From NCBI GenBank assembly GCA_025399215.1, contig MU621222.1:11708-47707 (forward strand): a stretch of 36,000 bases of DNA, in the 5' to 3' direction. The first letter of the stretch is position 1. Each line of letters starts with the position of its first letter. Origin of the DNA: Globomyces pollinis-pini (Eukaryota; Chytridiomycota; Chytridiomycetes; Rhizophydiales; Globomycetaceae). The notes beneath the pieces were generated by a model. That model searched no databases and had not been told where the DNA came from. It saw only the letters and a list, made by a program, of their open reading frames with translations. Below are positions 10,202-32,022 of this stretch, one piece after another. Position numbers and translations under genes: made by a program.

Positions 10202-11803
10202 ATGGACGATGAGCAAGTAAATGTCCTGCAACCGGTATAAAAACCACTCCTTTAAATAAATAGTGGGAAGAAGAATATAAAAAGAGTTGGGATATTCTAA
10301 AGGAGGATGATCAAGGAACTTTGACTAAAGCTGTTCATTCAATTAACCAACTGAAATTAGCAAAACGAAGGTATTCATTTGTTGTTGGATTTAATATAAA
10401 TCAGGTTCACTTATTAGAGTTTGGTTCTTATCGATTTAGGTTTGATTGGGTTGATTAACTTTGTAAGGTATTCAATAGTGGAACCACTCATATTTTCCAT
10501 TAGGTAATTCGAATCACTCAACAATACAAGGTTACTAAAGGATTCCGTCACCCTGCAACGTGGAATTATCAGACATGTCGTTGTATTAGTGGATTGTTCA
10601 AAGGCCATGGCTGATCAAGACCTTCGACCAAACAGATTAGAATGTACACTAGGACTCACAAGAGATTTTATCAACGAGTTCTTTATACACAACCCGCTAT
10701 CAATGCTAATGGTTGTTGGTATACGTGATGGATTAGCGGAACGGTTAGTTTAGATGAAATATCTCATTCAGATAGTTGGAGTGAATGGTCTGGAAATCCT
10801 GTAGAACTAATTAAACAATTAAAAAGTCGAGAGCATCGAACAGTACTGGGTGATTCTTCTTTACAAAACGGATTGGATTTATGCCACCAAGCGCTACAGT
10901 TTGCATTATTTTAGAAAGATAACATTTTAGGTACCAATTCAAACTATCAATAACTATTCAGGTACTTGAATTTATTCTAATGGTACCATAGGTATATACC
11001 CAATCATATTTCAAGGGAAATCGTCACATTATATGGCAGTCTAAGTACTTGCGATCCAAATGATATATCAGTGACAATACAGAAACTAAAACTGGACAGA
11101 GTCCGGGTTAGTTTTATTGGATTATCAGCACAAATAAAACTATGTCAAATAATTGCAGCAGAGACCAATGGTTAGAAATCAATTCTTGCTAATTCTAAAT
11201 TTTCTAGGTATCTTTAGTATAGCTAATTTAAAATCAAAGGTTAGCTCATTTGAATTTATAGATTTTAGGGGTGTATGATATTGTCATCAACGAGAGTCAC
11301 TATAAGGATCTATTATTTAGTCACATCCCACCACCACCACTGAGCAACAACAGTTCATTTCACATGATCCAAATGGGATTCCCAATTTTGCAAGAGTTTG
11401 ATCATATGATACTCTGTTCCTGGTAATTCGTCTGTGACGATACTGATACGTTTTAGTCATCAAAGATTAATTAAACAAGGACAACTATGTCCTAAATGTA
11501 AAAGCATAGTATGTGAGATACCCAGAGATTGTCCTGTATGTTCATTGACACTAGTATCTTCACCATCTCTCACTCGATCTTATCATCATTTGTTTCCAGT
11601 ATCAGTATTTCAAGAAAAGAAGTAAAAATTGTGAGCTTTAACGTGATAGAGGACTTATTGGAGGATGTTTTGGATGTAGTTCTGATTTTGAGGGTCAAAA
11701 TGGAGTTGGTTATCAATGTTTACAATGTCATCATAGTTTTTGCTTTGAATGCGATGTTTATATTCACGAAGGACTTTATAACTGCCCTGGCTGTTTATGC
11801 TAA
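10202..11803 (+). CDS. SSL1: TFIIH core subunit SSL1/p44 (GTF2H2)
   Basis: Eight exons (10202-10216, 10264-10370, 10531-10743, 10776-10898, 10992-11170, 11269-11422, 11457-11621, 11650-11803) total 1110 nt, 369 residues, in one frame. Order: WEEEYKKSWDILKEDDQG at the N-terminus, then a von Willebrand A-like domain starting QRGIIRHVVVLVDCS and including RPNRLECTL and SGNP, then SREIVTLYGSLSTCDPND and FIGLSAQI, then a CPKC..CPVC zinc finger with SLTRSYHHLFPV, and a final Cys/His-rich RING-like module. This matches SSL1/p44 end to end (human protein 395 aa). It is a structural subunit of TFIIH that stimulates the XPD helicase in transcription initiation and nucleotide-excision repair. Three of seven intron positions are tandem arrays. 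Confidence 0.93.
10371..10530 (+). other. Five-block tandem intron array (34+35+28+36+27 nt)
   Basis: Blocks 10371-10404, 10405-10439, 10440-10467, 10468-10503 and 10504-10530 each start GT and end AG, and abut as AG|GT four times. Removing all 160 nt joins AKR to RLLKDSVTLQRGIIR, exactly the continuity expected for SSL1. No internal segment adds plausible protein. Confidence 0.75.
10899..10991 (+). other. Three-block tandem intron array (32+31+30 nt)
   Basis: Blocks 10899-10930, 10931-10961 and 10962-10991 are contiguous GT..AG units. Removal joins CHQALQ to YIPNHISRE in phase, matching the p44 family. TCTAAT in the third block is a possible branch element. Confidence 0.72.
11171..11268 (+). 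other. Three-block tandem intron array (37+32+29 nt)
   Basis: Blocks 11171-11207, 11208-11239 and 11240-11268 abut as AG|GT. Removal joins AAETN to GVYDIVINESHY, as expected for p44. GCTAAT occurs in the first two blocks and TTGAAT in the third. Confidence 0.74.
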
Positions 11804-12098
11804 TAAAGACTCTTTGGTTCTTTGATATTTGTATTTGTTATTCATTTATGTTTGTGTAATCAATCCGTTTCCGTCTAATCCGTTTTTTTAAAGAATTCAA
11901 GTGCTGTTCTAATGGCAGTAAAAGCATTGAACGCGCTTGCAAGAGTGTAATAATGCAGCATAGTTGATTACCTCTCACTTAATACTCTTTACTCTATACA
12001 ATTTCTTCTGGCCTCTAATTACATATTGGCCACCAGTTTGTCACACCCTCCTTTCATTTAAATTTTCATCAGTTTTACTTTTTAATCATTTCCTGCTG

Positions 12099-13741
12099 AT
12101 GGTATTTGATTGATTGCTTATTCATTTTTAGGATAACAAACAAACTTTCTTTTTCGGTGTTACTTCAGGAGTCGCTCTCGTTGCTACGGTGCAATACTTG
12201 GTATCTTTACTAGCAACTAAACCTGTCGTTGCTGGCCAACAATTCATCTCTCATAAAGATCCTCTAAGAAAAAGACCTAAAGTCTTACAATCCCAAATGG
12301 ATTCAGAAACTCCAAATAGGCCAACTTCCGCTCTCCCTGGTTCTTTACTATCTACATTAGATACACAATTGACTGTACCTTCTTCAAAACTACAGAAAAT
12401 CGTATTACATATGGTTTCGGAATTCAAGAAAGGTTTGCAATCCGATGGAGAACAGATTGCCATGTTACCATCTTATGTTGTCAATCGACCAACGGGTAAC
12501 GAAACTGGAGTTTACTTGGCCTTGGACCTTGGTGGAACTAACTTCAGGTATGAATCCATCAACATTTTAATGTTTTATAGAGTATGTCGCGTTAATCTTG
12601 AAGGTTATGGAAATATTCGTATGTCACAGGCAAAGTATACCATCACAGATGAACTCAAGACTGGTGCTGGTACTAAATTATTCGATTTCCTTGCAGAATG
12701 TGTTGCTTCTTTTTGTCGCGACCAAAACATTCCAACTGATGTAAAAACCTCCTTAGGATTTACCTTTTCTTTCCCAGTTATTCAAAGTTCCATTAACACT
12801 GGTATTATGGAATAATTTATTAAGCTTTGTAGGAAAGTTGACACAATGGAACAAAGGGTTTACTTGTTCGGGTGTAGTTGGAGTAGATGTGGTAGATTTG
12901 TTACAAGCATCATTCAAGAAAAAAGGACTTAATATTGATATTAAGGCCATTGTCAATGATACAGTCGGTACCTTAATTGCTCATGCCTACACCGATCCAC
13001 AAACATACATTGGTGTCATCTTGGGCACAGGTACCAATGCTGCATATGTTGAAAAGGTTGATAATATTCGTAAATGGGGCACTGGAAACGGAGAAGTGGT
13101 TATCAATACTGAATGGGGTGCATATAACGAACCATCTATTTTGCCATTGACTCCATGGGATAAACTTTTGGATCGTCGTACCAACAACCCTGGTAAGCAA
13201 GTGTTTGAAAAGATGATTTCCGGCTTATACTTGGGCGAGCTTGTTCGTTTGATCCTTGTGGATCTCATAAAAGCTGGAGAATTGTTTGGTGGAAAAGGAT
13301 CTGACGAATTGCTTAAGACTCACAACTTTGACACTGCATACATGTCACGTATTGAACGGTAAATAATTTCATGTTTCTAATTTGTTTAGTGATCATTCCC
13401 TATCACTTTCTGATACTCGTCAATTATTGGAAGATGTATTGAATGTCCCAAACACCTCTTATGATGATCGTCGTATTGTCAAACATGTCTGTGAACTTGT
13501 TGGTACTAGAGCAGCAAGATTATCTGCTGCAGGTATTGCTGCACTGGTAACCAAGATCAATCGTTTGGATGCATGTACAGTTGCAATTGATGGATCGCTT
13601 TTTGAACACTATCCTCACTTTGGTAACCGTATGAGAGATGCGTTGCGTGAAATCCTTGGAATTACTGCACAAAATATTGTATTAGAACAAGCCAGAGATG
13701 GATCTGGGCAAGGTGCCGCTCTTATTGCTGCTTTAGCTTAA
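12099..13741 (+). CDS. HXK: Hexokinase with N-terminal hydrophobic anchor (copy 1)
   Basis: Exons 12099-12101, 12132-12547, 12581-12801, 12833-13358 and 13390-13741 encode 505 residues. The first coding exon is only the ATG. The 33-nt second intron has no stop and would be translated if overlooked. Motifs: LALDLGGTNFR near residue 133 (phosphate binding), GFTFSFP, FTCSGVVGVDVV, catalytic Asp about 256 in VNDTVGTL, and LGTGTNAAYVE. The enzyme phosphorylates glucose at the first step of glycolysis. Residues ~5-25 (FFFGVTSGVALVATVQYLVSL) form a hydrophobic segment not typical of yeast hexokinases, suggesting attachment to an organelle membrane, perhaps the outer mitochondrial membrane. An inverted paralogue lies at 20017-21647. 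Confidence 0.93.
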
Positions 13742-13827
13742 ACCAATAAAATATACATTGAAAAGAAGAATTATAAGAGTGTTTGAGATTTGTTAAAAAA
13801 GACGCGATTTTAATATTTTACACAAAC

Positions 13828-14517
13828 ATGTTTGAATTGAATGAGCAAGAAATACAAAAGTTATACACTTGGATTGATAGCGCTCAATTTTCCAGACCCA
13901 AGAAGAATCTGACCAGGGATTTTTCAGATGGAGGTAACTTTCTACACAGTTCAAAAAAGTTAATGTTAGTTGCTTGTGCGGAACTAATCCATCATTTTAT
14001 TCCCAAGCTGGTTGAATTGCATAACTATTCATCTGCAAATTCTGTATCCCAGAAATTATACAATTGGAATACTTTAAATTGTAAATACATTTAATTGATG
14101 ATAAAATTAGATAAGGTTTTCAAGAAACTTGGCTATCAAACTAGTGAAGAGATTATAAAATCAATAGTTGCCATGCGACCAGGTTACATTGAATATTTAC
14201 TGTATGATTTACGTAACAAAGTATATTCTCTACAATAATGATAGGTTCAAGAATATCTCACTCAAATTCCTTCCAAAACTCATCTTGAAACTTTACCTAA
14301 AGAATCGCCTACTAATATCACACCAAGACCAAAATCGAAATTGAAATTACATGAATTGGAAATGATTGAACGTGATCCATTGTTAAATCCTATCGTCAAG
14401 GAGTTGAATGAAACCATTAGAGTCTTGAGTTTAAAGGTAACTAAATTAGAAGAATTATTGGAATTGAAAGATCATCGAATACATGATTTACTTTCCAAAT
14501 TACAAAGGAATGAATAA
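13828..14517 (+). CDS. SPEF1: SPEF1/CLAMP-like flagellar CH-domain protein
   Basis: Exons 13828-13933, 13970-14080, 14111-14220 and 14245-14517 (introns 36, 30 and 24 nt) give 199 residues. The start reads LYTWIDSAQFSRPKKNLTRDFSDG, then HHFIPKLVELHNYSSANS, then KLYNWNTLN: the signature of the SPEF1 calponin-homology domain. The C-terminus (ELNETIRVLSLKVTKLEELL, then KDHRIHDLLSKLQ) matches the short coiled coil typical of the family. SPEF1 bundles microtubules in the axonemal central apparatus, so the organism very likely makes flagellated cells. The 24-nt third intron is the shortest I could place here. The ATG at 13828 is the first that gives the family N-terminus. Confidence 0.9.
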
Positions 14518-15052
14518 ACGTTTAATGATATTGAATTGAAATGAATTGATTTTTAATGTGGAAAGTTCAATTAGAAATATTTTTCGAATTCATCTCTTCT
14601 CTGTGGATAGGTTTATCCATCGTCCTCTCATATGATCACGTACTTTGGTAGTTGTAACCATCATGTGATTCACCAATTGGGGTTTTTAGCTAGTAAAGGG
14701 CACTAAATTAGATTTTGCATTTAGCTTGATGATCAATCACAAATTATTCTTCGTGAACTTAATTGATTACCAATCTCTCTTGATCTTGCTCATTGACACA
14801 GCGTTTCACTTTACCATTTCCATTGTGCAGGATGACCTATGACCTTCGGTCAATGAATAATGTCATCTAAGCCTAGCACCTGATCAGCTATCTTTAATCC
14901 AGTCACATTATTTTATCTCAGGTGATTCTCTCCTTTTGACTCAATTCCTGTCCGTGTGTAGTATCGTGACTGAACACAACACCGTTGATGAACTGAGAAC
15001 CTTGTATTTAAACAGTTACTGATTGAATTTTAAACGATATCTTTAAACAAAA
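14518..15052. promoter_or_regulatory. Intergenic/promoter region of the GH7 gene
   Basis: A 535-bp region without a supported gene. A TATA-like TATTTAAA lies at 15005-15012, about 40 bp before the GH7 start codon. A short palindrome TGACC-TTC-GGTCA sits at 14840-14852, with another TGACC just before it. These are candidate core-promoter and transcription-factor sites, by pattern only. Confidence 0.4.
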
Positions 15053-16528
15053 ATGAAAATTGTTTCTTTAACTGTTTTTGCAACTATTGCCAGTGGTACT
15101 ACTTTCAAACGCGATACTGCATGTGCTGCCGAATATCAACAATGTGGTGGAAAACAACATACGGGTGCTACATGTTGTCAATCTGGGTTGATCTGTAATG
15201 TGATCAATGAATACTATTCTCAATGTAATCGAGCTCCTCTACCACCTCCATCTACTACCGATTCTCAACCTCCTCGTCCAACCACTTCTCCAAATCCTCC
15301 AGCCAGTGGAAAAATTCGTCCTGGTACTGTCAAAAAGAATTTCAATCCTCCGTTCGCAATCAAAACTGATGGAATCAATGTCAATAGTGCTGTGACTATT
15401 GATGCTAACTGGAGATGGGTTCACGATAAAGATTACAGGAACTGCTATGATGGGAAATGGGGAAGTCAATGTCAAGATCCAGCAACTTGTGCTGCTCAAT
15501 GTGTACTTGAAGGTGTTGAAGAAGCTGATTGGAAATCTACTTATGGTATTACATTCCCTGATGAAAAGAGTGTACAACTCAATCTTGTCACCGGTACAAA
15601 TATTGGATCTAGATTGTATCTTCTTGATAGTACCAAGAATTCTTACTATGGATTCAATCCCATGAATCGTGAGTTTCACTTTACTGTGGATTCATCTAAG
15701 CTTGGATGTGGATTGAATGGTGCTCTTTACTTTGTGACTATGGATTTGACTTCTGAAGATACAACTGCAGCCGGACCTGCTTATGGAGTTGGATATGCTG
15801 ATGCTCAATGTCCAGCTGATATCAAATACATCAATGGTATCCCAAATGTTAGTAATCCACCATTACAAATCTGTTCTCCTGAAATGGATCTTTGGGAAGC
15901 CAACAAGTTCTCCAATGCGTTCACTCCTCATCCATGTGCGACTCCATTGAAGGCAACTGTTTGTAATGGCCTTGAATGTGGTAATGGAAGTGATCGTCAA
16001 AATGGATTATGTGATAAAGATGGTGCTGATTATAATCCTTATCGAGGTGGTAATACTACCTTTTATGGTCCATCTTCAACAAACGTAATTGATTCTACCA
16101 AACCTATCAAAGTCATCACTCAATTCATTACCAAGAACAATGCAGACGATGGTGATTTGGTCAAGATTCAACGATTCTATCAACAAGGCGGTAAAACATT
16201 CTATGGTGGTATGATGACTGATACATTCAATGACCTTCAAAAAGATCTATTTAAAGATCCAAATACATTCAAACGATTGGGAGGAATGAAACAAATGGGA
16301 GTGAGCTTACGTAACAAGATGGTTTTGGTGATGAGTATCTGGGGGGATACCGTGACCAATATGGAATGGTTAGATTCTTCAGTACCAGCTGGATCTAAAG
16401 AACCTGGACATGTTCGTGGAGTTTGTCCACCTGGTAAAACTTATCAAGATTCTATTGATCCTAAAGCATCTGTTACTTATAGTGACATTCAACTCAACAA
16501 AATTGTGAACTACCAAACTGCAAATTAA
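15053..16528 (+). CDS. Secreted GH7 cellulase with N-terminal CBM1
   Basis: A single uninterrupted exon of 491 codons. Residues 1 to ~17 are a signal peptide. Residues ~24-60 form a fungal CBM1 cellulose-binding module (YQQCGGKQHTGATCC through SQC). A Pro/Thr/Ser linker runs to ~88, and the rest is the GH7 catalytic domain. The catalytic motif PEMDLWEAN places the nucleophile at Glu277, Asp279 and the acid/base at Glu282; the cysteine pattern and GGMMTDTF and MVLVMSIWGD segments also fit. GH7 enzymes are cellobiohydrolases or endoglucanases that release cellobiose or cut cellulose chains; I cannot judge the loops that separate the two. The CBM1 is at the N-terminus rather than the C-terminal position usual in ascomycete Cel7A. 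Absence of introns is notable beside its intron-rich neighbours. Confidence 0.95.
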   Translation: MKIVSLTVFATIASGTTFKRDTACAAEYQQCGGKQHTGATCCQSGLICNVINEYYSQCNRAPLPPPSTTDSQPPRPTTSPNPPASGKIRPGTVKKNFNPPFAIKTDGINVNSAVTIDANWRWVHDKDYRNCYDGKWGSQCQDPATCAAQCVLEGVEEADWKSTYGITFPDEKSVQLNLVTGTNIGSRLYLLDSTKNSYYGFNPMNREFHFTVDSSKLGCGLNGALYFVTMDLTSEDTTAAGPAYGVGYADAQCPADIKYINGIPNVSNPPLQICSPEMDLWEANKFSNAFTPHPCATPLKATVCNGLECGNGSDRQNGLCDKDGADYNPYRGGNTTFYGPSSTNVIDSTKPIKVITQFITKNNADDGDLVKIQRFYQQGGKTFYGGMMTDTFNDLQKDLFKDPNTFKRLGGMKQMGVSLRNKMVLVMSIWGDTVTNMEWLDSSVPAGSKEPGHVRGVCPPGKTYQDSIDPKASVTYSDIQLNKIVNYQTAN

Positions 16529-16762
16529 CATTTCTATTCATAACGTATAGAATAAATTTCTGATCAAAATGATAATCATTGTTGTTTACTTACTGTCTTG
16601 AGATGATTTCTATACTTTAGTGAATATACCTATATATTGATCGTAGTGGATGAATTCCATGGACAAGATTTTCACAGAATTCAAAGTCGTGTTTAGATAC
16701 TAAAATGATACGGGTAAAATAAGAATGCAGTTGTATATATCATTTTATTAGTTTTGATCTCT

Positions 16763-19684
16763 TTAAGGCTTTTCAACAGTCACGACTAATGGTACTTGTT
16801 CATGATTTGGAGCTGGAGGAATTCCATAATATTTGCGTTTGAAGAATTTGTAAATCTCTGATATAATCAAAAACACCACAACTTGGGCCAAAAGTATAAT
16901 CCACCATCCAGGTGCAAAGCTTGATTGTTCAAACACGTAGACATTGACTTGTGGAATAAATGCTGTTGGGATAGTCATTGCAATTCCAAAAGCTATGGCA
17001 CCCCACAAGTAATAATTTTGGACTTGATCTTTACGAAAGGCAGAAAGACGCAAATGTCGACAGTTGAATCCATGGACAAGAATTAGTAAAGAGAGTGAGT
17101 AGAATGAAAGGGCCCTAGCAGCATATACTGGTTCACATACACCTTCAGTAAATTCTTTACCACAACGGGGAGGAATATTATGTATTCCAACATCATGATG
17201 GAGCGAGGCAATAAAAGTACCCAAAGAAAAACTTCCCAACCAAAACCCATAAAAGAAGAGATCAATTAAGGTATGAGTGTTAATAATCGAAGATCCAGCT
17301 TTGCGAGGAGGATGTTGCATGATATCAGAAGCAGGTGCTTCCACCCCAAGAGCGAGGGCAACAGGTGACGAAGTGATCATATTCAACCATAATATCTGAA
17401 TAGCTGACATTGGAAAAACAGTATGGCCTTCACTATCACGAATGGCTAGACCAAATATAAGGACAATAACTTCAGATACATTTCCTGAGAGTAAATGCAA
17501 TGCAATTTGAGTGATGTTTGTAAATATACACCTGCCTTCTCGAACGGCAGAAAGAATTGATCGAAAATTATCATCTGTTAATGTAATTGCAGAAGCTTGC
17601 TTTGTTACTTCCGATCCAGTAAGTCCCATAGCAATACCAATATCCGCTTGTTTAACTGCTGGTGCGTCATTGACCCCATCACCAGTCATTGCAACATATT
17701 TACCCCGTCGGTGTAAAGCTCCAACGAGACGAACTTTTGATTCTGGAGCACATCGAGCAAGAACAAGTGGCAGTTTCTCCAATTGGTCGATTTCATTATC
17801 GGTCATTTGATCAAAATGAGACGCAATCATAACTAATGGACTTCCAGGTGGATCAGTAGGCAAAAGAATACCAACTTCACGTGCAATCGCTTCAGCTGTT
17901 TTGGGATGGTCACCAGTAGCCATGTGAACAACAATTCCAGCAGTACGACATTCTTGAACAGAAGGAAGTGATTCTGGTCGAGGTGGGTCGTAAATAGCAA
18001 CCAGTCCCACAAACACCATTTCGGATTCAGCATCTTGACGAGCCATACCTTCGACGTGAGGAACGTGTGTGTGTTTTGTAGCCATAGCCAAGACTCTCAT
18101 TCCTTTTCCGGCAAAGTCTTCCATAATATCGATGATCGATTTGGTTTTTTCTGGAGTTATAGGATGAATCTGTCCATTTTCAGAATATTTATGACATTGA
18201 GAGATAATCATATCCAAGGCACCTTTTGAAAAATAAACATACTTCTCCCCATGCTTGTAAACAGTGGTCATTCGTTTCACTGATGAATCAAAAGGGTATT
18301 CGTGGATAAATTCGTAGTCTTTTCCCACCAGGTCAGCTTTCAAGAAACTCATTTTCGCAGCCAATACTTGAAGTGCAATTTCTGTTGGAGCTCCGGTGGC
18401 TTTCCATTGATTAGTTTTCTTGTCGATGAACAAATTTGATGTGGTACATAACGAAGCAACCAAAAGCCCCGATTTCAATTCTTCGCGTGAATTTACCATC
18501 TCAGGACTGATTTCAATTTCTTCTTCTCCTTTAAGATGTAAAACTTTGCCCACTGGAGCAATTGGTTCACCAGAGATTTTGTACATCATACCCCCAAAAC
18601 TAGCAAACCTAGCCACCATTTTACCTTCGGTTAATGTCCCAGTTTTGTCCGAGCAGATATTAGTAACTTGACCAACAGCTTCCATTGCAGGTAATTTACG
18701 AACCAGTGCTTTTTGCTTACTCATACGGCTTAAACCAAGAGCGAGGACAACAGTAATAACGGCAGGCAATCCTTCAGGCAAAAGAGCGATACCTACAGAA
18801 ATAGCATACAAGAACGTATCAGTCGACCATTGAAATTTTTCAATGGCAAAGACAAAAATACCCAACACAACAGCAGCCACGACACAAAAAATCATCAATC
18901 GATCAAGTGTAATCATCAATGGAGTTTTTTTCGGTTTCTTTTCACCTTCAGATACCAAAGTTGCAATTTTCCCAACCTCTGTTTTAAAAGCTATACTAAT
19001 CACAACTCCAGTACCACGACCTTTGACTATTTTGGAATTCATGTATGCTAAATTCACACGGTCTCCTACAGATGGTTCTTCTTCTCCACGAACAAGTGCT
19101 CTGGTGTTTTTGGGAATCGGAAGTGATTCTCCAGTCAAGAAAGCTTCATCAGTTTCCAAATTGACAGCATCAATTAACCGTAAATCTGCAGGACATATCG
19201 CGCCAGTTTCAAGAGTTAATATATCACCAGGTACTACTTGAGAGGAAGGGATCTCTTGAAGCATTCCATCTCGTAAAACCTTGGCAGTTGGTGAAGTCAT
19301 TTGACGTAACGCATCCATAGTCTTTTCAGATCTATATTCTTGCATAAATCCAATACCAGAGTTGGTGATGATGACCAACAATAAAACACCGACTTTAACC
19401 CAGTCTAGAACAGCCAAAGAAACGATTAATGCACCGATTAAAACAGCATTCATATAATTGAAGATATTTTCAAACAAGACTTTCCAGATTGATGGACCAG
19501 TATCACCTTCAAGTTTATTTTCACCGAAACGTAATTTATTTGCAGTAACTTGATCAGCAGAAAGTCCAGAGTGCGCTTTCACGTTAAAATGTTCGAGAGT
19601 TTGTTGAATCGTCCAAAAATGAGTTTTTAAATCATCCAAAGAATTATTTAAGGGTGTCACTTCTTCTACTGTTATCTGCATCAT
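16763..19684 (-). CDS. ENA1: P2-type cation ATPase, most like P2D (ENA) Na+/K+ efflux pumps
   Basis: One exon of 973 codons. Features: an N-terminal cation-ATPase domain, actuator motif LTGESLP, TM4 motif PEGLP, phosphorylation site CSDKTGTLTEGK with Asp346, nucleotide-domain KGAL, hinge MTGDGVNDAPA, and about ten membrane helices ending in a basic tail. The SVGDRVNLAYMNSKIVKGRG segment and a C-terminal stretch with ASDIMQHPPRKA resemble ENA-type P2D pumps. The intact PEGLP in TM4 is closer to Ca2+ pumps, so a Ca2+ or mixed specificity is possible. The likely role is export of Na+ or K+ at the plasma membrane. It is convergent with the GH7 gene, with 234 bp between the two stop codons. It has no introns, unlike most genes here. 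Confidence 0.88.
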   Translation of the reverse strand: MMQITVEEVTPLNNSLDDLKTHFWTIQQTLEHFNVKAHSGLSADQVTANKLRFGENKLEGDTGPSIWKVLFENIFNYMNAVLIGALIVSLAVLDWVKVGVLLLVIITNSGIGFMQEYRSEKTMDALRQMTSPTAKVLRDGMLQEIPSSQVVPGDILTLETGAICPADLRLIDAVNLETDEAFLTGESLPIPKNTRALVRGEEEPSVGDRVNLAYMNSKIVKGRGTGVVISIAFKTEVGKIATLVSEGEKKPKKTPLMITLDRLMIFCVVAAVVLGIFVFAIEKFQWSTDTFLYAISVGIALLPEGLPAVITVVLALGLSRMSKQKALVRKLPAMEAVGQVTNICSDKTGTLTEGKMVARFASFGGMMYKISGEPIAPVGKVLHLKGEEEIEISPEMVNSREELKSGLLVASLCTTSNLFIDKKTNQWKATGAPTEIALQVLAAKMSFLKADLVGKDYEFIHEYPFDSSVKRMTTVYKHGEKYVYFSKGALDMIISQCHKYSENGQIHPITPEKTKSIIDIMEDFAGKGMRVLAMATKHTHVPHVEGMARQDAESEMVFVGLVAIYDPPRPESLPSVQECRTAGIVVHMATGDHPKTAEAIAREVGILLPTDPPGSPLVMIASHFDQMTDNEIDQLEKLPLVLARCAPESKVRLVGALHRRGKYVAMTGDGVNDAPAVKQADIGIAMGLTGSEVTKQASAITLTDDNFRSILSAVREGRCIFTNITQIALHLLSGNVSEVIVLIFGLAIRDSEGHTVFPMSAIQILWLNMITSSPVALALGVEAPASDIMQHPPRKAGSSIINTHTLIDLFFYGFWLGSFSLGTFIASLHHDVGIHNIPPRCGKEFTEGVCEPVYAARALSFYSLSLLILVHGFNCRHLRLSAFRKDQVQNYYLWGAIAFGIAMTIPTAFIPQVNVYVFEQSSFAPGWWIILLAQVVVFLIISEIYKFFKRKYYGIPPAPNHEQVPLVVTVEKP

Positions 19685-20016
19685 TTATAAAAATTTTAGT
19701 AAAGAAGATTTGACGATCAAGATGACTTGGATAGTTAAAATGATTACAAAATGGATCGGATTTAAATAAATTTAACAGCCACCTCTTTTACTCCAAAAAC
19801 AAGACAACGGAACGAGCCCTTGGATTTTTTTAAATTGAGCCCATGAAATTGCATCTGCCTAGATCCGATTGATCTCAACATCACGCGTTTCCTAAACAGC
19901 TTTAATCAAACGTACAAATTTATTGGTGTTGAAACCTTATTACTCTCATTAAAATATTGTAAGATTATAGCAAGTATATTAAGTACATTACCATTCAGAA
20001 AAACAAAAAGTAGGTA
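19685..20016. other. Intergenic region between the ATPase start and hexokinase copy 2
   Basis: A 332-bp AT-rich spacer holding the presumed promoter of the minus-strand ATPase and the 3' flank of hexokinase copy 2. No further feature is visible. Confidence 0.5.
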
Positions 20017-21647
20017 TTAAGCAAGAGCAGCAATTAATGCTGCTCCTTGTCCTGAACCATCTCTAGCTTGTTCCATAACAATGTTTTGAGCTGTGATTCC
20101 AAGAATTTCCTGTAGTGCATCTCTCATACGGTTTCCAAAATGAGGATAATGTTCATATACAGAACCATCAATGGCAACTGTACATGCATCCAAACGATTG
20201 ATCTTGGTAACCAGTGCAGCAATACCTGCGGCAGATAATCTTGCTGCTCTAGTACCAACAAGTTCACACACATGTTTGACAATACGACGATCATCATAAG
20301 AGGTGTTTGGGACATTCAATACATCTTCCAATAATTGACGAGTATCAGAAAGTGATAAGGAATGATCACTAAACAAATTAGAAACCTATATTCCTTACCG
20401 TTCAATACGAGACATGTATGCAGTGTCAAATTGATAAGGAATGTTTAATGCTGGAGATCCATTTCCAGAAAACAACTCTCCAGCTTTGATAAGATCAACA
20501 AGAATATTTCGAACAATTTCACCCAAATACAATCCAGAAATCAATTTTTCAAATATTTGTTGTTTAGGATTACTAGTATGACGATCAATGTTACGATCCC
20601 AAGTAGTTAAAGGCAAAATAGATGGTTCGTTATATGCACCCCATTCGGTGTTGATGATAACTTCCCCATCATCACGATTCCATTTTGGAATATTATGAGA
20701 TTTTTCAACATAGGCAGCATTTGTTCCAGTACCCAAGATAACACCAATGTATGTTTGTGGATCAGTGTAGGCATGTGTAACGAGAGTTCCTACAGTATCA
20801 TTGACAAGAGCTTTGATGTTGATCTTAAGTCCTTTCTTGTCAAATGCGAGTTGAAGTAAGTCAACGACATCAACACCAACAACACCTGAGCAAGTAAATC
20901 CTTTACTCCAATGAGTCAAAGTTCCTAGACTAAGTTTATTTTTAAATGTACCTTTGTTGATAGCGGTTTGTAGAACTGGGAAAGAGAAAGTGAATCCCAA
21001 AGATATGTGATTATCTGTTGGAATATTATTGTCCCTGCAGAAGGCAGCAACACAATCAGCAATAAAGTCAAACATTTGGGCCCCAGTACCAGTCTTGAGT
21101 TCTTCAGAGATGGTATATTTTGCATGATTCATACGAATATTACCATAACCTTCAAGATTAACACGACATACTCTATAATAGATAAATATCTTATGACTAT
21201 CATACCTGAAATTGGTTCCACCGAGATCAAGAGCGAGATAAACACCAGTTTCCTTTCCAGTTGGGCGATTTACAACATAAGAAGGAATCATGGCAAGTTG
21301 TTCATTATCATTCTGTAACCCTTTCTTGAATTCCGAGACCATATGTAAGACAATTTTCTGTAACTTAGAGGAAGTTACAGTTAATTGTTGATCTAATGAT
21401 GCCAATAAAGTACCACGGATAGGGGAAGAAGGTCTGGTAGCAACTGCAGAAAGATTCTTTTCATTTGATTGCTTTTGTGATTTTTCAGGAACATTTTTAT
21501 ATGAGGTTGAAATAGTTGTAGGTTGTTGATGTTGTTCACGAAGGGACACCAGATATTGTACAGTGGCAACGAGTGAGATACCAGTGGACACACCAAACCA
21601 GAATATGAGGTTATTCTACATGATAAATTCAATACTCAACTCACCAT
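20017..21647 (-). CDS. HXK: Hexokinase with N-terminal hydrophobic anchor (copy 2)
   Basis: Exons 21645-21647, 21206-21615, 20952-21172, 20399-20924 and 20017-20368 encode 503 residues, with introns at the same positions as copy 1 (29, 33, 27 and 30 nt). The first coding exon is again just ATG, followed by NNLIFWFGVSTGISLVATVQ, a hydrophobic anchor. Catalytic and nucleotide motifs match copy 1 (ALDLGGTNFR, VNDTVGTL, LGTGTNAAYVE, NTEWGAYNEPS). Two introns are multiples of three and free of stops, so naive translation adds spurious residues. The last exon is nearly identical to copy 1 over its first two thirds while other parts are diverged, pointing to gene conversion. Both copies appear intact. 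Confidence 0.93.
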
Positions 21648-23899: not shown

Positions 23900-24768
23900 A
23901 TGAGATTATCATCGGCAGTACTTTCCTTTTTCAGTCTTGTTGATGGTAATCACAGATACCATCATAAATCTGTCCATCATGATTCCTCTTTGGCACATTG
24001 GGCCAACATGGCAGTTGAATCTACCTCCAAACCCACATTCCTTCCATCATTCGAAATCTTTCAAAATGCTATCGTAAATGCCAATGCAAAAGTTGGAGAT
24101 CCTCAACCTGCACCATCCAAAAGTGTTATTCAGGAAGCATATGATGAAATATCCAATGTCCAAAAAAAGCAAAAATTCTTTTCTGGATTAAATGAAGTAG
24201 CAATGTTCTTGGCGAATGTTTTACAAGAAACAAATATGTTAGTAAGAGAACAACATTGTGGAAAAGATCGACGAAAACCTTCATGCAATACTGGATGCGG
24301 AGGTTGTGAAGGTGGTAAGCAATACTTTGGAAGAGGTATTATAGATTTATTATTAAAAAACTAGGATACCTTCAATTAACACACCAAAATAACTACAAAT
24401 TCTTCTTTGCTTACTATAACAAAATTTATGGTACAAAGTACAGTCATTTGAAGCAGAATGATTGTAATCTGGTGGCTACCAAACTTGCCTGGAGTAGTGC
24501 ATTTTATGTCTGGCATCGGGACGCAGCTGGTCCAGATTTTTACGATAAATATCACCCTGTCTCTGGTTCCTTTGGATATTCAATTAATTCAATCAATGGA
24601 TGTATGGAATGCAAAAAATATTGTCAGCTGAATGATAATTGTCCAGATGGTTGTCATGGTCCAGATGGTGCTGCTCAAAAGAGAGCAAAGTACTTCCAAG
24701 CACTTCAAAGAGGATTTGGTCTGCGTGTAAGCTCAGACAGAGAGGCACTGAAAGGTTGTTTGTATTAG
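23900..24768 (+). CDS. Secreted GH19-type chitinase-like protein
   Basis: Two exons (23900-24335, 24365-24768; intron 29 nt) give 279 residues. The N-terminus MRLSSAVLSFFSLVDG is a likely signal peptide, followed by a His/Ser-rich stretch. The core matches GH19: AMFLANVLQETN with the candidate catalytic acid Glu110, a Cys/Gly-rich loop (CNTGCGGCEGG), and YFGRGYLQLTHQNNY formed exactly across the splice junction. The C-terminal half has a Cys-rich insertion (CMECKKYCQLNDNCPDGC). GH19 enzymes cleave chitin and some relatives act on peptidoglycan. In fungi the family is known from microsporidia and zoosporic groups, where wall remodelling or host attack are plausible roles. The second catalytic Glu is not obvious to me. 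Confidence 0.82.
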
Positions 24769-24901
24769 AAAGTTGTTTTACTATAAAATCAATTTGTTGT
24801 GCTATTGCTGTTTTTCTGAATGTCTGGAACTATAATTGATAAGCATAAGATAAATGTATTTACAATAGTTAAAGTTGTATATATTTATAATGCTATCATT
24901 T

Positions 24902-27900
24902 TTAATCTACTGGTACAATCTTTGAATTCCTACCACAACATGAAAAGCAGTTGGAAAAGATCAATCTGGAACTTGGCTTCACTACCACTGGCTCTACGTC
25001 CTTCACTGGTTTAATATTGGCTTCAGTTAAGGATTGCTTGATTAAAGGTTCTGACTGGTTGGTGATTTCCTCTTCTATCTCATCTTCTTGATTCTTATTT
25101 TGGCTTAGTTCATCTATAGATGCATAGATGTTTATGGATCCATAGACACTAGCCTCCTTCAGTTTCATTGTGCCCAAGTTTTCAATGTCTTTTTCACTCT
25201 CGTCATCACTTTCATCTTCTGTCTCATTGAATTGGGTTGAACCAACAAGTACAATTCGTGGGCATACGTATTCGATAGTCGTTTGAGTGTTAGCATTGTT
25301 TGGTGTCGTAATTACACTGGCTTTGCTGGTTTCGGCACTAATTCGGTTCAAATAAACATTAGGCAGTTCAATATTTCGGTCAGCTGTAATAGGTTCATAA
25401 GGTAATATTTGATGATCTTGAATGGGTAACGAAAATAAAATAATTGAGTTTCCTATAATGAATTAAATCCAAAGATTTACCATAATATCGTACTAATCTT
25501 CGATCCGACACAACTTGAGAAAATATTAAACATCGTAGTCCCAAATTATTTTTGAAATAGCAATATGGTTTATCAACTATCCCATACCAACTGAATTCAT
25601 GTAATGCAATTGAAGATCTATAGATGCTTTGTCCACTCATAAAACAATCATTGGTAACACCATATTCTATGTCATTGATAAAATCATAAAGGAGGTATCG
25701 AAAATTTGGCATACCACTACATATTAATAATTTGGTTGAATCTTCATTAAATTTTAATCCATTACAATCCAATTTGACAAAGAAATTACGATTTGTATTC
25801 AAAATTAAATCTAGAACTTGAATTTCGGTTTGATATTTGCCAAGGTCAATTGAAACTGCAAGTTTTGATTGGTTGTCATTGATAGAGATGGCCTTGATTG
25901 ATTTTCCAAGATTCAATTGCTTAACTAATTCAAATTTATTGTTCCATATGTATACTAGCCCGTCGGAACAGCCATTTATAATCGTACTTCCATCTGAATT
26001 GATATAACCACATGTTATTTGACCGCCGATATCATTCCCAGTAGTTGTTAAATTCATCAAACCAAGTTTTTTGCAACTACTGTTCCATAGAGTAATGTGA
26101 AGATCAATAGAGTTAAATGTCATGATATAATTTCCATCACTAGACATATAGATGGAGGTATCATTTGACAAACTCTGTTCCGAAATGCATTTTAATTGAC
26201 CTCGTTCATTATAAATATGCAGAAACATTTTCTCGATAGTACAAATAACTCTACCATCATCTGATTGACACATCAATAATGAATCATCATATTTGAAATG
26301 TGGAGTGGTAGCTGTAGTACGAAAAGTGGATGTCTCATTACATGGTAACTTTGGATCTAAACTGCAAAGTAATGGTAAAGAAGTGTCTGAAAAGCTACAT
26401 ACTACATATCCATCAGTGGCTTCGATAAATATTTGACATGGGTTTGGAATATTAAGTTTGAACATATCTTGTGGTTTTAAACTGTATGTTTCCAAACACC
26501 ATACCATTACCATTAAATCAACTGATATTGTTGTCAATCGCCTCGTTTCCGGATCAACTTTCATATCTAATATTTTGACACCGTTATTAGAAATTCTGTG
26601 AAGCTCCGTTTGCTCTTCTAAGCTAAATATGGAAATGATATTGTTACAACTATATATAATCTCCTGTTGATTCCCTCCGAATATGATATGATTAATTGGA
26701 CTGCTTTCTTTGCAAATAATATGTCCTTGATTAAAGCGCTTACTCCATTGCATAATAGTTCCATCCTGTAGGCCAATATATACATGACATGCTTCATCAT
26801 CCATCATGACAGCAGTAATTGAACAATGAAAGCTCAGACTATGAGTGAATTCTGTTGATTTAGTCTCTCCATTCCAAATATAGAGTCGATTATCAGATGT
26901 GGTAATGATAGTAGCATTTCTTGATGTAACACGATCGTCAATCAAGAGATGCACTGGACCAGGATGTGGTACTCTAATGACTGAAACATTATTTGTATCC
27001 ATATCATAATCAATGAAGCATAATTGATGTATTCCATTCACCGAGACTGATGCCGACATTTCATCCATCATATCAAGAGCGCCAAACTTTTGTACTCCCA
27101 GCAATGGTATAAATATCAAAGGTTTTGTACAATTATCTAAGCAATAAATTTCTATACCTTTCTCTGTTCCTAACCCAATTTGTTCTTTTCGAACGAATAT
27201 TCCAAATGTTGAATTTGTATCAGTTTCGTATCTACATATTTCACGACTCCACCAATTACGATCAGTGTAAATCAAGTCATAACTTGGATCCAGATGTTTT
27301 TCTAGGTAGTTTAGAGATATAATAGAATTTTTTGGCAAGTCAAGTAACACCGTTTTGAAAATCTGTGAAGAATCAATCTTCAATAGGTCTCCATATTGTA
27401 AAATAATACTAATCACTTCATTCAAGATTGTATCAAGGGCAATAAAATCTTCTTGTAAAGATAATGTTTTGGTTTGTTTAAATTGAAGTCCCAATTTAAT
27501 CTTAACAATATCAGATCGTCTTACTTTAAACCCTAAAAAGAATTGAAGCTCCAACCAAAGCAGTACTGAAGGAGGTTTTTCTTTTGCATTTGTTGGATTA
27601 AAGAAAGATCTGGCTCTTTTAATTATTTTTGTGGTGAACTGAATATTGGAAAGTTGAAATGATAAAATCCAGAATCGTGAATAGTATTTTAAGAGTTTGG
27701 GCATTTTTTTTAACTCTGTTTCATTTTGTCTGTAGATGGGTTTCGATAGATATAAGTTGAAGACTTTCAAACCTCTTGTCATCCATAACATTAGACTGTT
27801 ATGGAACCAATCTGCATCAAAAACATCTGACTCATCTTGTATCATTTTCATGAACTGTTCTGTTGTTGAAAATGATTGAGAATCAATATTAAAAAAAACT

Positions 27901-29770
27901 TTTTTAGATTCAAGTTGATATTCCAACTCTGATAATGACATTTCGAACCCTTCATATTGCAAACTTTCGTACAAATCTATCAATGTAGGATATTGTGCAC
28001 CACTAAGCCTAAACTGCCAATGAATCTGACAGAATTCAAAAATAAATTTCCAAAATGGATCCAGCATATGTGATTTAATATCATTTGGATGTGTAGTAGA
28101 ATAATTGATTGTATCTTCAATATATCTATCAATAATATTTTCTTCTGTCAACATACAGTTTTCCATAAATAAAGAGTACAAGTCTCGATCAAACTTTGAA
28201 GCAATGCGATTAACTTTTTGGTATGTATTTAATGGTTCTGAAATTTTTGACATTAATTTGTTTACCAAAATAGCTTGTACCTTTTCATCATAACCAAAAA
28301 CGGAAAATTCAATCTTTGCTTTTAATGTGGTTAATAAATCCTGCTCCAAATGCAGAGGGAATAAGATGGATTTTTTCCCCATAAACCAAGAATCATCATA
28401 TGTTAAGGATGCAGTTAGGATAAATTTGATATATTTTCCTTCCAGTTTACTGAGGCATTGCAGTAGCTTTACCATATCCGATGTTGACTGTCTGAGCAAC
28501 ACGTCTACAGAATCAAGCACCAACACAACTCTTGTTCTAGATTTTATAGCAGGCTCCACTAGCATTTCTTGAAATATTGACACTATAGAGTCGTTACTGT
28601 CGTCATTCCAATTGGATGAGAGAATAGGCTGATTGTCTAGTGCTTTAGCAAAATCAAAGTTTTTTGAAAGTTGTAGAGCAAATCCGGCAATAATATTAAT
28701 TGGCTTGTATAGATTGACTTTTGAATGTTCTAGAAGTTAGTTATGCTTTATTTATCTCTACCATTGGTATCTAGTAAAGTGTAGGCCACCAAAGCGTTTT
28801 CCAACATATCCCCAATTTTGGAAGCGAATATAGTTTTACCGGTTGCTTATTCAAAATTAACAAGAAGTAGCTTACATTCAGGTGATTTCAAAAGATATCC
28901 TTTATGCTTTCCATTATACCAATGCTGTATCTCTGCTGTTTTTTTCACAAGTGTATTTTCTACAAAACATTGTTTAGCAGCTTTCAATTGAAAATGACAA
29001 ATATATGGTGAAAACGATTTTAGCTTGTCCTGGATTCGATCAAAAAGCTCAGTCTCTTCTTGGATTCTTAATTTTTTTTTTAAAGATTTCACTCCTTGTT
29101 GTATTGAATCTGATATTCGATGAATGTCTACAACCTACTCATAAGTTAAATCTATAATTACCTTCAAAATTAGTTTCGATATAGTACTTGTTCATGTGTT
29201 TCTAACAAAACCTCGTATGAAATACATTCTTTCCAATTAACCATCGCCCGTTCGAATTCTTCCAGTAGTTTGTCCAAATCTTTTGGAAATAGTATCGCAT
29301 CTAATCTTTCAAACATACCCGTTTGCTTAGCTAAATCAAATTTCTTTGTCATTGATGTTAAATCTTTCATTAGTTTCTCAACAGCAGCTTTTAATTCTGT
29401 AGATTGTGCATTTTTCTTGACTCGTTTGCATTCCTTTGTTGAAGCTTCAATAATTCGTCGAAACTTTTCAAGTAATTCCTGTTTGTCCTAAAAGATAAAT
29501 CTATTGATGAGCAAGAACCTGCTCTTTGATGTAATCTTTCGCTACATTTATAACTAAAGTTGAAGCAACTCCTACAAAAGACCCTATAGGTGCAGGTAAA
29601 AAATCTGATAGTTTGTTGATGGTCTTTGCAACAATTAAGGTCACTTTTACTGCATTTGGTTTCTTTCCACTTTCCATTTGTTTGCCAATGCTTATCACAT
29701 CTTTAAATATTGACTTGTTCTCGGTATATACTTCTTTTATATCATCTATAACGGATGTTATGGTATTCAT
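24902..29770 (-). CDS. NACHT/STAND NTPase with WD40 repeats (NLR-like, 1564 aa)
   Basis: Six exons (29519-29770, 29188-29487, 28876-29134, 28762-28845, 25481-28729, 24902-25452) total 4695 nt. Residues 1 to ~260 form a helical N-terminal region (starting MNTITSVIDDIKEVYTENK). Walker A is SPESTGKT with Lys274, and Walker B is VVLVLDSVDVLL near residue 370. A helical NACHT-associated region follows, then about ten WD40-like repeats from ~800 to ~1400. An acidic linker leads to a C-terminal Cys cluster (NCFSCCGR) that might be lipidated. STAND proteins of this plan act as ligand-triggered switches; in fungi, relatives control incompatibility and non-self responses. An apparent TAA before Walker A lies inside a 30-nt intron (28846-28875), so the gene is not broken. 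It is divergent from ANAPC7. Confidence 0.87.
29135..29187 (-). other. Two-block tandem intron array (27+26 nt)
   Basis: On the coding strand, 29187-29162 (26 nt) and 29161-29135 (27 nt) are contiguous GT..AG units in the NACHT-WD40 gene. Removing both joins LLETHEQ to VVDIHRISD in phase; an in-frame TAA in the first block shows that it must be removed. ACTAAT and TTTAAC elements are present. Confidence 0.68.
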
Positions 29771-30072
29771 AATCTATGTGATTAATACGAATAAACGCGT
29801 CCAAACGAAATTTTTGGAAATTGAACATTCAGTCACCTATTTATTGCAGATACGTGGTTTTCTTAATATTCAATACAAGATCTCTCTTTGAAGAGCATCA
29901 TTCCATAATTTTAGTATAAATATGCAGAATTGGTATATTAGTAAAAGTACTTCAATAGCTTCTATGCTACTTACCATGAACCATGCTAATTGCATAATAT
30001 TTGAATGGTCATACTGAAGTTGCAGTTCAGTTGCTATTGTCAATTCTCTTTTTCTCAAAAATACCTACAAAC
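29771..30072. promoter_or_regulatory. Divergent promoter region, NACHT-WD40 / ANAPC7
   Basis: A 302-bp AT-rich spacer between two divergently transcribed genes. I see no ORF worth keeping and no clear motif; it presumably holds both promoters. Confidence 0.45.
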
Positions 30073-32022
30073 ATGACAACGGATTTGTTCGTACAGGCCC
30101 ATTCTTTGTTCACCAACGGTCTTGTCGACTCTTGTATGATTTTAGTAAGCAGATTCAGATCAACTAATATCTTGACATCAACTTTGATGCAAAACCAACA
30201 AACTCGGACTCCACAAGTGATCATTTTATATGCAGATTGTTTAGTTAAAAACAAGGAATATTTACGATCGTTGGTAGACTCAGTTGCTTTTATATCTAGA
30301 AATTCTACGAAACTGCTTTCGAATTGTTGAAAAACAATAGTAGTAAGTGGGTTGAACAAGCTTTGAACAGATATTTTGACGCTTGCATTAAAGCAAAACA
30401 ATTCGATAAATTAAAAGCAAAGGTATTATTGGTACGATTTTTTATATTTAGTTTCATGAAGTTCCATTGCAAAAGTTGTCAATCCAATCTCTAAGACAAT
30501 TACTGATAGTCTACGATCATGCTAGTAATATCAAGTATTGATTTATCATAATTAATCTAAGATCTGCTATTGAATGCTGCAAACAAATCTTAAGGTAGAA
30601 TTGCTAAAACAATAATTTCGCAGACTTCAACCTTTGGCGATAGAAATAGCTATCAAGTTATTAGAATATGGAGTCTCAATGAATGAGGTGTTACCGTACC
30701 TTGATAAAAACCAATTCATGCTGGATTATTGTTCAGCCAATTACAACTCATTACAGTGTTCATTTGACAGTAATTTACTCGATTTCAATTAATTCATTAT
30801 CATTTAAAGACGCTATATACGGATTTAAATCTCTGGAACAAAATATGAAGGGTGATTGTGATATAATGTCAAAGTTAGCTGTCACATACAAGAATTCAGG
30901 AGATTATTTTGCCGCACTATCTGTATTTCGAAAAATTAGGATGATTGATCCATTTTATGTTAAAGGAATGGATCATTATGGTCAAATATATCAAGAGCAA
31001 GGAAGGATTCAGGATTTACAAAGGTAAAGTTGATTTTTAAACTCATTCCTAGGTGAGTTATTAATCAGATCTCTTATTTTCAAAAAGGTTTCCCACCTGT
31101 ATTGTATTAAACAGTGAAGGCTGATTGATGATTTGATTAGTTTTGCGATGGAGAGTTGTGAAACATGGATACTTCTATCATTACTTTCCTTGATTAAATG
31201 TGATTATCCTCAAGCATCAAATCATATAGACAAAGTAAAATTGCTTTCGAATGTAATGATAGTAGGCATTAGAGATAAACAGTTTACATATGTTGAGTTA
31301 TCAAATTAAAGGTTTCATATTATGATTAATCATTAAGGAGAGATTATGTTGGCAGTTGGAAATCCTAATGCTGCATGTCTATCATACAGAAAAGCATACA
31401 GATTATCTAGAGACATAATAAACTACGAAGGATTAGTTTTATGTTACCTGTCTCTTAACAGAAACAATGAAGCTCTACGTTTATCTCAAGAAGCGTTAAC
31501 ACTCTTTCCAAAGTCTAGTATTGCCGTTTATTTATCAGGACTAGTATCATCTCAAGACTATGAAAAGGTATTTCTCATGATGGTAACAAAAAGGCTCAAA
31601 CGCTATTTGAAAAATCCATTCAAATGGATCTAAAATGTATCAAGCCATTGTTAGCCTTATCTGATTTACATTTGAAGAATGGTGAACCACAGAAAGCAAT
31701 TGAAATGTAGAAAATAATCTCATATCTAATCCTACAGTATTCAATCCCATCTCGCTCATCATCCTGTTCATACTATCCATCTTAAATTGGGATATTTATT
31801 TTTCCAGCAAGAAGATTGGGCAAATTCACGGTATCATTATAATGCAGCATTAAGGTATGTTCATTTTTTGATAATTAATATACCAGTATGTTTCCTGAAA
31901 GTGAAGTTGCACAAACAGGTTTGGCTGATATTGAGAAAGCCATCAATGGCTCTGGCGAAGAGGATGGAGATTTGGAGAGTGAAGATGAAGGTGATATGGA
32001 AGCTAATGTGTTTGATGGATAA
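30073..32022 (+). CDS. ANAPC7: Anaphase-promoting complex subunit 7 (TPR protein)
   Basis: Twelve exons (30073-30273, 30300-30422, 30452-30534, 30562-30594, 30624-30769, 30810-31022, 31119-31234, 31266-31311, 31338-31567, 31594-31706, 31738-31854, 31887-32022) give 518 residues. Family landmarks run in order: PQVIILYADCLVKNKEY, SLEQNMKGDCDIMSKLA, MIDPFYVKGMDHYGQ, NPNAACLSYRKAYRL, NYEGLVLCYLSLNRNNEA, EKAQTLFEKSIQ, and an acidic tail with GSGEEDGDLE. The TPR superhelix and acidic tail are those of APC7, part of the TPR arm of the APC/C ubiquitin ligase that drives mitotic exit. APC7 is absent from budding yeast, which fits an early-diverging lineage. The raw DNA looks full of stops only because of 11 short intron positions. 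One position is a three-block tandem array. Confidence 0.92.
31023..31118 (+). other. Three-block tandem intron array (29+35+32 nt)
   Basis: Blocks 31023-31051, 31052-31086 and 31087-31118 abut as AG|GT twice. Removal joins GRIQDLQR to LIDDLISFAMES in phase, consistent with APC7. The second block begins GTGAGT, a strong donor in the middle of the array. Confidence 0.74.

What the first reader, a model, noticed from the sequence alone, without database searches (positions are those of the whole stretch)
10371..31118. Tandem introns with zero-length exons: six introns built from abutting GT..AG blocks
Six of 55 reconstructed intron positions have composite lengths: 160 and 93 and 98 nt in SSL1, 96 nt in ANAPC7, 53 nt in the NACHT-WD40 gene and 59 nt in a small membrane-protein gene. 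Each splits without remainder into 5, 3, 3, 3, 2 and 2 consecutive GT..AG blocks of 26-37 nt, the same size as ordinary introns here (24-47 nt). Internal boundaries read AG|GT in all 12 cases. From base composition, AGGT is expected roughly twice in the ~560 nt involved. Many blocks carry a branch-like TAAT or TAAC near the 3' side. AG|GT with no exon is the ratchet-point arrangement of recursive splicing, known from very long animal introns; here it would be in miniature. Inference: introns multiplied by insertion at AG|GT or by block duplication, and the splicing machinery may be limited to ~30-nt units, so longer introns exist only as chains.
Basis: partly seen in the sequence, partly recalled or inferred. 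Interest (0 to 1): 0.9.

Follow-up and report, generated by a model that had tools for sequence, protein, structure and literature searches.

The report
Chains of tiny introns without exons
In the genome of a chytrid fungus, some gaps in genes are not one intron but rows of two to twelve ~30-letter introns joined end to end with no exon between them, which suggests that the cell cuts them out one by one and that introns can multiply by being copied in place.

Summary
The genome is most likely Globomyces pollinis-pini, a chytrid. My gene finder, trained on 286 kb of it, puts 532 of 568 introns at 22-39 nt and, when zero-length exons are allowed, finds 15 intron positions made of 2-5 abutting GT..AG units. 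Six loci picked by a whole-genome pattern hold seven more chains, of 2-12 units, up to 365 nt. Of 11 chains tested against solved structures, 9 lie at gap-free positions. Genome-wide, TAGGTA pairs occur 379 times at intron spacing, 35 and 41 times at two other spacings. Adjacent units resemble each other above chance in 14 of 75 pairs, so tandem duplication of whole introns is one source. That longer introns exist only as chains is wrong: a single 84-nt intron is homology-supported. Unit-by-unit removal is my best explanation but is inferred; no RNA data were available. Nine searches of open-access papers showed no description of such chains.

The parts
10202..11804 (+). SSL1 / TFIIH p44 gene; exons 10202-10234, 10264-10370, 10531-10743, 10776-10898, 10992-11170, 11269-11422, 11457-11621, 11650-11804
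   Evidence: Exons chosen by hand with recalled p44 as guide, then checked: 375-residue product aligned to 5o85_B, E 2.2e-95
10371..10530 (+). Chain of 5 introns, no exon between: 10371-10404, 10405-10439, 10440-10467, 10468-10503, 10504-10530 (34+35+28+36+27)
   Evidence: Unique split; 1 of 2000 shuffles splits; one-residue gap seven residues upstream in the alignment
10899..10991 (+). Chain of 3 introns: 10899-10930, 10931-10961, 10962-10991 (32+31+30)
   Evidence: Gap-free alignment across it; 5 of 2000 shuffles. The gene finder added a false 4th unit, removed by homology
11171..11268 (+). Chain of 3 introns: 11171-11207, 11208-11239, 11240-11268 (37+32+29)
   Evidence: Gap-free alignment across it; 5 of 2000 shuffles
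31024..31119 (+). ANAPC7-like gene, chain of 3 introns: 31024-31052, 31053-31087, 31088-31119 (29+35+32)
   Evidence: Gap-free alignment to APC7 4ui9_X across it; 13 of 2000 shuffles
29135..29187 (-).
   Evidence: Gene finder only; the run without chains called 29135-29211 instead; 60 of 2000 shuffles
9032..9090 (+). Possible chain of 2 introns: 9032-9063, 9064-9090 (32+27)
   Evidence: Splits without remainder, but no gene called here; 153 of 2000 shuffles split too. Not confirmed
7088..7169 (-). Single 82-nt intron (gene-finder call) in a WD40-like gene that does not split: possible counter-example to 'only chains'
   Evidence: not checked by homology

Best explanation
These are tandem chains of ordinary, minimal spliceosomal introns. 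Each unit of about 23-38 nt has its own donor, acceptor and usually a branch-like motif and is most likely recognised and excised on its own. Because every internal boundary reads AG|GT, removing any unit leaves the same AG|GT behind, so the units can be removed in any order and the exons end up joined exactly. Chains grow at least in part by tandem duplication of whole intron units, which is harmless as long as each copy can be spliced; the copies then diverge. Shown: existence, zero exon length, genome-wide spacing, duplication in part of the chains. Inferred: unit-by-unit excision, order-free removal, near-neutral growth.
For: Zero-length exons: 29 exons of exactly 0 nt against 0,2,0,0,2,0,0,0,2,1 for 1-10 nt in a decode that allows any exon length; with exonic splice-matrix positions zeroed, 16 against 8 summed over 1-10 nt (one of the 29 is false by homology). 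Whole genome: TAGGTA pairs at N16-30: 379; N31-45: 35; N1-15: 41; three in a row 105 against 11 for the backwards control. Chains of 10, 8, 12, 4, 2, 6 and 7 units in six fetched loci. Of 11 chains tested against solved structures, 9 lie at gap-free positions with the nearest gap 11 or more residues away: SSL1 93 and 98 nt, APC7, MSH2, CLK, MARK-type kinase (365 nt, just before the DFG motif), ATG3, PHYHD1, DCN1. All 92 units of 22 chains are 23-38 nt. Internal sites of the 15 sample chains do not differ significantly from single introns (+3A 20/28 p 0.057; -3T 16/28 p 0.077; branch-like motif 18/28 p 0.53), which argues against decay of unused sites. Duplication: adjacent units above the 99th percentile of random intron pairs in 14 of 75 (0.8 expected; cross-triple control 1.0%), above the 99.9th in 9.
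Against: No RNA evidence; one-step removal from first GT to last AG gives the same mRNA. The spliceosome here can take a single intron of 84 nt, so two- and three-unit chains could be cut in one step. Two of the 11 tested chains are not at clean positions: SSL1 160 nt (gap seven residues upstream) and KIFAP3 33+31 (variable stretch with gaps). One long call, L007 7177-7273 (97 nt), holds AG|GT inside but does not split into units: a broken chain or a false call. Adjacent units are not recognisably similar in 61 of 75 pairs. Outer sites of chains look weaker than those of single introns, which the model does not predict. Units are slightly longer than single introns (mean 29.3 against 28.4 nt, p 0.011). 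The public model of the PHYHD1-like gene keeps two units as exon. The backwards control of the pair pattern at N16-30 is itself high (284), so the pair result rests on the spacing contrast. Two-unit chains have weak shuffle support one by one (29-364 of 2000).
Confidence: 0.78

Rival explanations
1. One-step removal: each composite is one longer intron, and the inner AG|GT sites are leftovers of tandem duplication that are not used.
For: A single intron of 84 nt is homology-supported, one of 74 nt is called. Part of the chains are tandem repeats. In fission yeast, two introns gained by tandem duplication comprise tandem repeats (PMC3629103, passages). L007 7177-7273 holds AG|GT without splitting.
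Against: Unused sites should decay, yet units with no detectable similarity keep GT, AG, size and branch-like motif, in rows of up to 12 with no remainder. How often broken chains occur was not scored systematically.
Confidence: 0.15
2. Nested splicing (stwintron-like): an inner intron is cut first and restores the donor of an outer one.
For: Fungal precedent: stwintrons are nested introns removed in consecutive reactions (PMC5639578, PMC12403724, passages).
Against: In the chains examined every boundary is AG|GT, so no donor or acceptor is interrupted.
Confidence: 0.03
3. The units are tiny exons or alternative exons, not introns.
For: The public model of the PHYHD1-like gene keeps units 4 and 8 as exon, 19 extra residues. 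In L033 my gene finder reads one unit-like stretch as a 10-residue exon.
Against: Three related chytrid proteins lack the 19 residues, and 9 of 11 tested chains lie at gap-free positions of structure alignments.
Confidence: 0.03
4. Chance or gene-finder artefact.
For: Two-unit splits arise in 29-364 of 2000 shuffles depending on the case.
Against: Spacing peak in the whole genome without any gene model; homology across chains; chains of six or more units split in 0 of 2000 shuffles each.
Confidence: 0.01

Closest known systems
Recursive splicing at Drosophila ratchet points
   Same: Juxtaposed acceptor and donor with an apparent zero-nucleotide exon; removal in steps (PMC8605326, abstract and passages).
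   Different: There the sites lie mostly in long introns and need a cryptic exon behind the site (same passages). Here the whole stretch of 50-365 nt is nothing but units of 23-38 nt, up to 12 in a row.
Stwintrons (spliceosomal twin introns) of ascomycete fungi
   Same: Complex intervening sequence in a fungus, removed by consecutive reactions (PMC5639578, PMC7138796, PMC12403724, passages).
   Different: Stwintrons are nested: one intron splits a splice element of another. Here units abut and no donor or acceptor is split.
[quoted passage not shown] ATP2A1, potato, fission yeast)
   Same: Tandem copies joined at proto-splice sites such as AG|GT (PMC4974935, PMC3629103, passages).
   Different: In the classic model an exon segment is copied and becomes intron (in potato an intron-exon stretch); here whole introns are copied, into chains.
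Dual-specific splice sites, tandem array in human UBC
   Same: AGGT used as donor and acceptor, in a tandem array (PMC10809524, abstract and passages).
   Different: UBC units are coding ubiquitin repeats with variable inclusion; here units are non-coding and absent from homologous proteins.
Introners / introner-like elements
   Same: Introns that multiply (PMC4457414, search listings only).
   Different: Introners are scattered through a genome (recalled); the two chains that I searched as DNA match only themselves.

Membership tests
Recursive splicing (ratchet points) | Juxtaposed AG|GT that restores a donor after the first cut | tested here: met
Recursive splicing (ratchet points) | Lies within long introns | tested here: not met
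   The 22 composites are 50-365 nt
Recursive splicing (ratchet points) | Cryptic exon with its own donor downstream of the site | not tested
   The next boundary follows after 23-38 nt, but cryptic donors were not scored
Recursive splicing (ratchet points) | Partly spliced intermediates or lariats at the site | not testable with these tools
   No RNA reads available
Stwintron | An internal intron interrupts a donor, branch site or acceptor of an external intron | tested here: not met
   Donors and acceptors of all 92 units are complete and boundaries abut; branch sites were only scored by motif
[quoted passage not shown]
   For a minority: 14 of 75 listed pairs, 15 of 42 in the fetched loci, 4 of 28 in the sample, above the 99th percentile
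[quoted passage not shown]
   Similarity of units to flanking exons was not searched
Introner-like elements | Near-identical copies in many unrelated genes | tested here: not met
   Two chains searched as DNA: self match only; the other chains were not searched

The most novel reading that the evidence does not exclude
The genome holds several hundred to about a thousand intron concatemers: minimal introns that multiply in place by tandem duplication at AG|GT, stay nearly neutral because every copy is itself a complete splicing unit removable in any order, and so form a route of intron gain and gene growth not described before.
Probability: 0.7. Interest if true: 0.92.

Novelty: new variant of a known kind. 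Interest (0 to 1): 0.86.

Why it matters
How new spliceosomal introns arise is a long-standing question with few caught-in-the-act cases. Arrays such as six 27-nt units behind one start codon, or five related 27-28-nt units in the PHYHD1-like gene, look like introns caught multiplying. Chains of up to 12 units would ask the spliceosome to act up to 12 times at one exon junction, which makes the limits of intron definition, the order of removal and the cost of each splicing step directly testable. Practically, gene callers that forbid zero-length exons may misread such genes: the public PHYHD1-like model carries 19 extra residues, and none of the 120 SSL1 relatives listed bears the name Globomyces.

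Tried and rejected
U1 snRNA search with Rfam RF00003 found nothing, but the controls were silent too, so it says nothing. The window had no Rfam hit at gathering threshold and no tRNA by a bacterial-code scan. A flank filter kept 54 of 568 introns and was set aside as too strict. A first pass with a flat length prior up to 300 nt gave 478 introns, 70% of them up to 48 nt, with many long calls that I take for gene fusions. A 93-nt intron called in C1 29661-29753 is not counted as long: I read a hidden exon in it, from recalled insulysin relatives. Comparison with other strains or species was not possible: no relatives are held. Odds: I lowered the main explanation from 0.80 to 0.78 and the exon rival from 0.04 to 0.03 on recheck, because of L007 7177-7273 and so that the odds add up.
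Full report
Organism. The window is G000:C133:11708-47707 of an 18.5-Mb assembly in 459 contigs. Its P-type ATPase is 99% identical to a protein of Globomyces sp. JEL0801. A Globomyces pollinis-pini protein (BC833DRAFT_47563) lies on a contig of 131,799 bases, exactly the length of C12 here, and matches the gene read from C12 apart from 19 extra residues. The genome is thus most likely that of G. pollinis-pini, a chytrid of the order Rhizophydiales.

The observation. All six composites exist and split as described; the ANAPC7 one is shifted by one base. In 559 nt there are 12 AGGT, against 0.94 expected from the intergenic rate. By dinucleotide shuffles the 160-, 93-, 98- and 96-nt cases are each below 1 in 150; the 53-nt case is at 3% and the 59-nt case at 7.7%. 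Four cases are backed by homology: SSL1 93 and 98 nt and APC7 96 nt lie at gap-free positions of alignments to solved structures, and SSL1 160 nt has a one-residue gap seven residues upstream. The 53-nt case rests on the gene finder; the 59-nt case is not confirmed.

A gene finder without homology. I wrote a semi-Markov gene finder and trained it on 286 kb (window, 70 kb of C1, 18 contig starts of 10 kb) starting from open reading frames. With lengths of 18-170 nt allowed and no chaining, 532 of 568 introns were 22-39 nt, 1 was 40-53 nt and 35 were longer. The length prior was re-fitted to short introns during training, so this gap is partly shaped by it. In a second decode any exon length, zero included, was allowed: 29 internal exons were exactly 0 nt, against 0,2,0,0,2,0,0,0,2,1 for 1 to 10 nt; the only other peak below 30 nt is 6 at 15 nt. 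With the exonic positions of the splice matrices zeroed it was 16 against 0,2,0,0,3,0,0,0,2,1. One zero exon (SSL1, a 4th unit added to the 93-nt chain) is false by homology, which leaves 28 in 15 chains, 10 of them outside the window.

Whole genome, no gene model. The pattern TAGGTA-N16-30-TAGGTA, two consensus boundaries one intron apart, occurs 379 times; at N31-45 35 times and at N1-15 41 times. The same pattern read backwards gives 284, 244 and 349, so the evidence is the spacing contrast, not the excess over the backwards count. Three boundaries in a row occur 105 times, backwards 11. Some pairs will be ordinary introns whose flanking exons happen to fit; triples are hard to explain so.

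Long chains. I fetched six loci from the triple list, so these are chosen for strong consensus. The gene finder read chains of 10 units (285 nt, PHYHD1-like), 8 (235 nt, ATG3), 12 (365 nt, MARK/SNF1-type kinase), 4 and 2 (unnamed gene, L033), 6 (162 nt, SDR-like, right behind ATG) and 7 (204 nt, DCN1). In L033 the two chains are parted by a 10-residue exon that looks like one more unit (one search lists TAGGTA boundaries on both sides), so that may be one longer chain. All 92 units of the 22 chains are 23-38 nt.

Test by homology. Of 11 chains put to solved structures, 9 lie at gap-free positions, the nearest gap 11 or more residues away: SSL1 93 and 98 nt, APC7, MSH2 29+24, the 5-unit CLK chain, the 12-unit kinase chain between ..VKIT and DFG, ATG3, PHYHD1 and DCN1, there also across a 9-nt exon behind the chain. 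The other two are SSL1 160 nt (see above) and KIFAP3 33+31, which falls in a variable stretch. The remaining chains were not put to this test.

How it works. Each unit has the parts of a single intron. In the 15 sample chains, internal donors have A at +3 in 20 of 28 (single introns 482 of 564, p 0.057), internal acceptors T at -3 in 16 of 28 (418 of 564, p 0.077) and a TRAY branch-like motif in 18 of 28 (398 of 564, p 0.53). Internal sites are thus at most slightly weaker. Outer sites look weaker: +3A 7 of 15 (p 0.0006), TRAY in the last unit 4 of 15 (p 0.0007); this is post hoc and unexplained. Units are slightly longer than single introns (29.3 against 28.4 nt, p 0.011). The best reading is that every unit is cut as an ordinary intron by intron definition. 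Removing any unit from AG|GT..AG|GT leaves AG|GT, so the order does not matter and the reading frame is safe. This is inference; one-step removal yields the same mRNA.

Where the units come from. In 75 of the 100 listed triples (those outside the fetched loci; neighbouring triples can share a unit) the two units score above the 99th percentile of random intron pairs in 14 cases (0.8 expected) and above the 99.9th in 9; units paired across triples do so at 1.0% and 0.1%. In the fetched loci it is 15 and 10 of 42 adjacent pairs; in the 15 sample chains 4 and 1 of 28. Tandem duplication of whole units is thus one source. The remaining pairs are either old copies or unrelated introns set side by side. 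Two chains (SSL1 160 nt, SDR-like) have no other match in the genome, so these two are not scattered introners.

What does not fit. A single 84-nt intron in the KIFAP3-like gene is crossed gaplessly by 9w9h_C and has no AG|GT inside. A 74-nt intron called in a LeuC-like gene has no internal AG; the solved relatives are distant there. The gene finder also called single introns of 80 and 82 nt. So longer introns do not exist only as chains. L007 7177-7273 (97 nt) holds AG|GT but does not split into units; it may be a broken chain or a false call. I did not count broken chains systematically.

Public annotation. The public PHYHD1-like protein has 19 residues that three related chytrid proteins lack; they are the translation of units 4 and 8 of the chain, and the model then implies introns of 85, 84 and 59 nt. 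I take this as an annotation error; if it rests on RNA it would mean alternative retention. None of the 120 SSL1 relatives listed (of 354) bears the name Globomyces.

In print. Nine searches of the open-access library gave no description of such chains in their listings; papers outside that library were not searched. Closest are recursive splicing (PMC8605326, abstract and passages), stwintrons (PMC5639578, PMC7138796, PMC12403724, PMC8469720, passages), dual-specific AGGT sites in UBC (PMC10809524, abstract and passages) and intron gain by tandem duplication (PMC4974935, PMC3629103, passages). The number of chains in the genome, about 700-1000, is a rough extrapolation from 10 chains in 250 kb outside the window or 15 in 286 kb.

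Noticed in passing
window 12099-13741 (+) and 20017-21647 (-): Two hexokinase-like paralogues (name recalled) in opposite orientation, each with four predicted introns of 27-33 nt and near-identical C-terminal ends.
   Followed up: no
286-kb sample: Donor sites have G at +5 in only 24% of 564 single introns and rely on A at +3 (85%); unusually weak for a fungus (comparison recalled).
   Followed up: partly
15 sample chains: First donor and last branch region of a chain are weaker than in single introns (7 of 15 and 4 of 15).
   Followed up: partly
L018 4885-4958, L008 8722-8805, L014 2790-2869, window 7088-7169: Single introns called at 74, 84, 80 and 82 nt, a narrow range, that do not split into units.
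   Followed up: partly
L030 (C12:41200-43200) and public protein P0241: Public gene model keeps two chain units as exon, adding 19 residues.
   Followed up: yes
L007 7177-7273 (-): 97-nt intron call with AG|GT inside that does not split into units; broken chain or false call.
   Followed up: no
C1 19928-21981 (-): CLK-type kinase with a repeated RYDDR motif at the N-terminus; the gene finder places several introns within that repeat.
   Followed up: no
L035: DCN1-like gene has a 9-nt exon (EHH) between a 7-unit chain and the next intron.
   Followed up: partly
window 15053-16528 (+) and 24008-24768 (+): Intron-free cellulase-like gene with a Cys-rich N-terminal stretch, and a chitinase-like gene (names recalled, not searched).
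   Followed up: no
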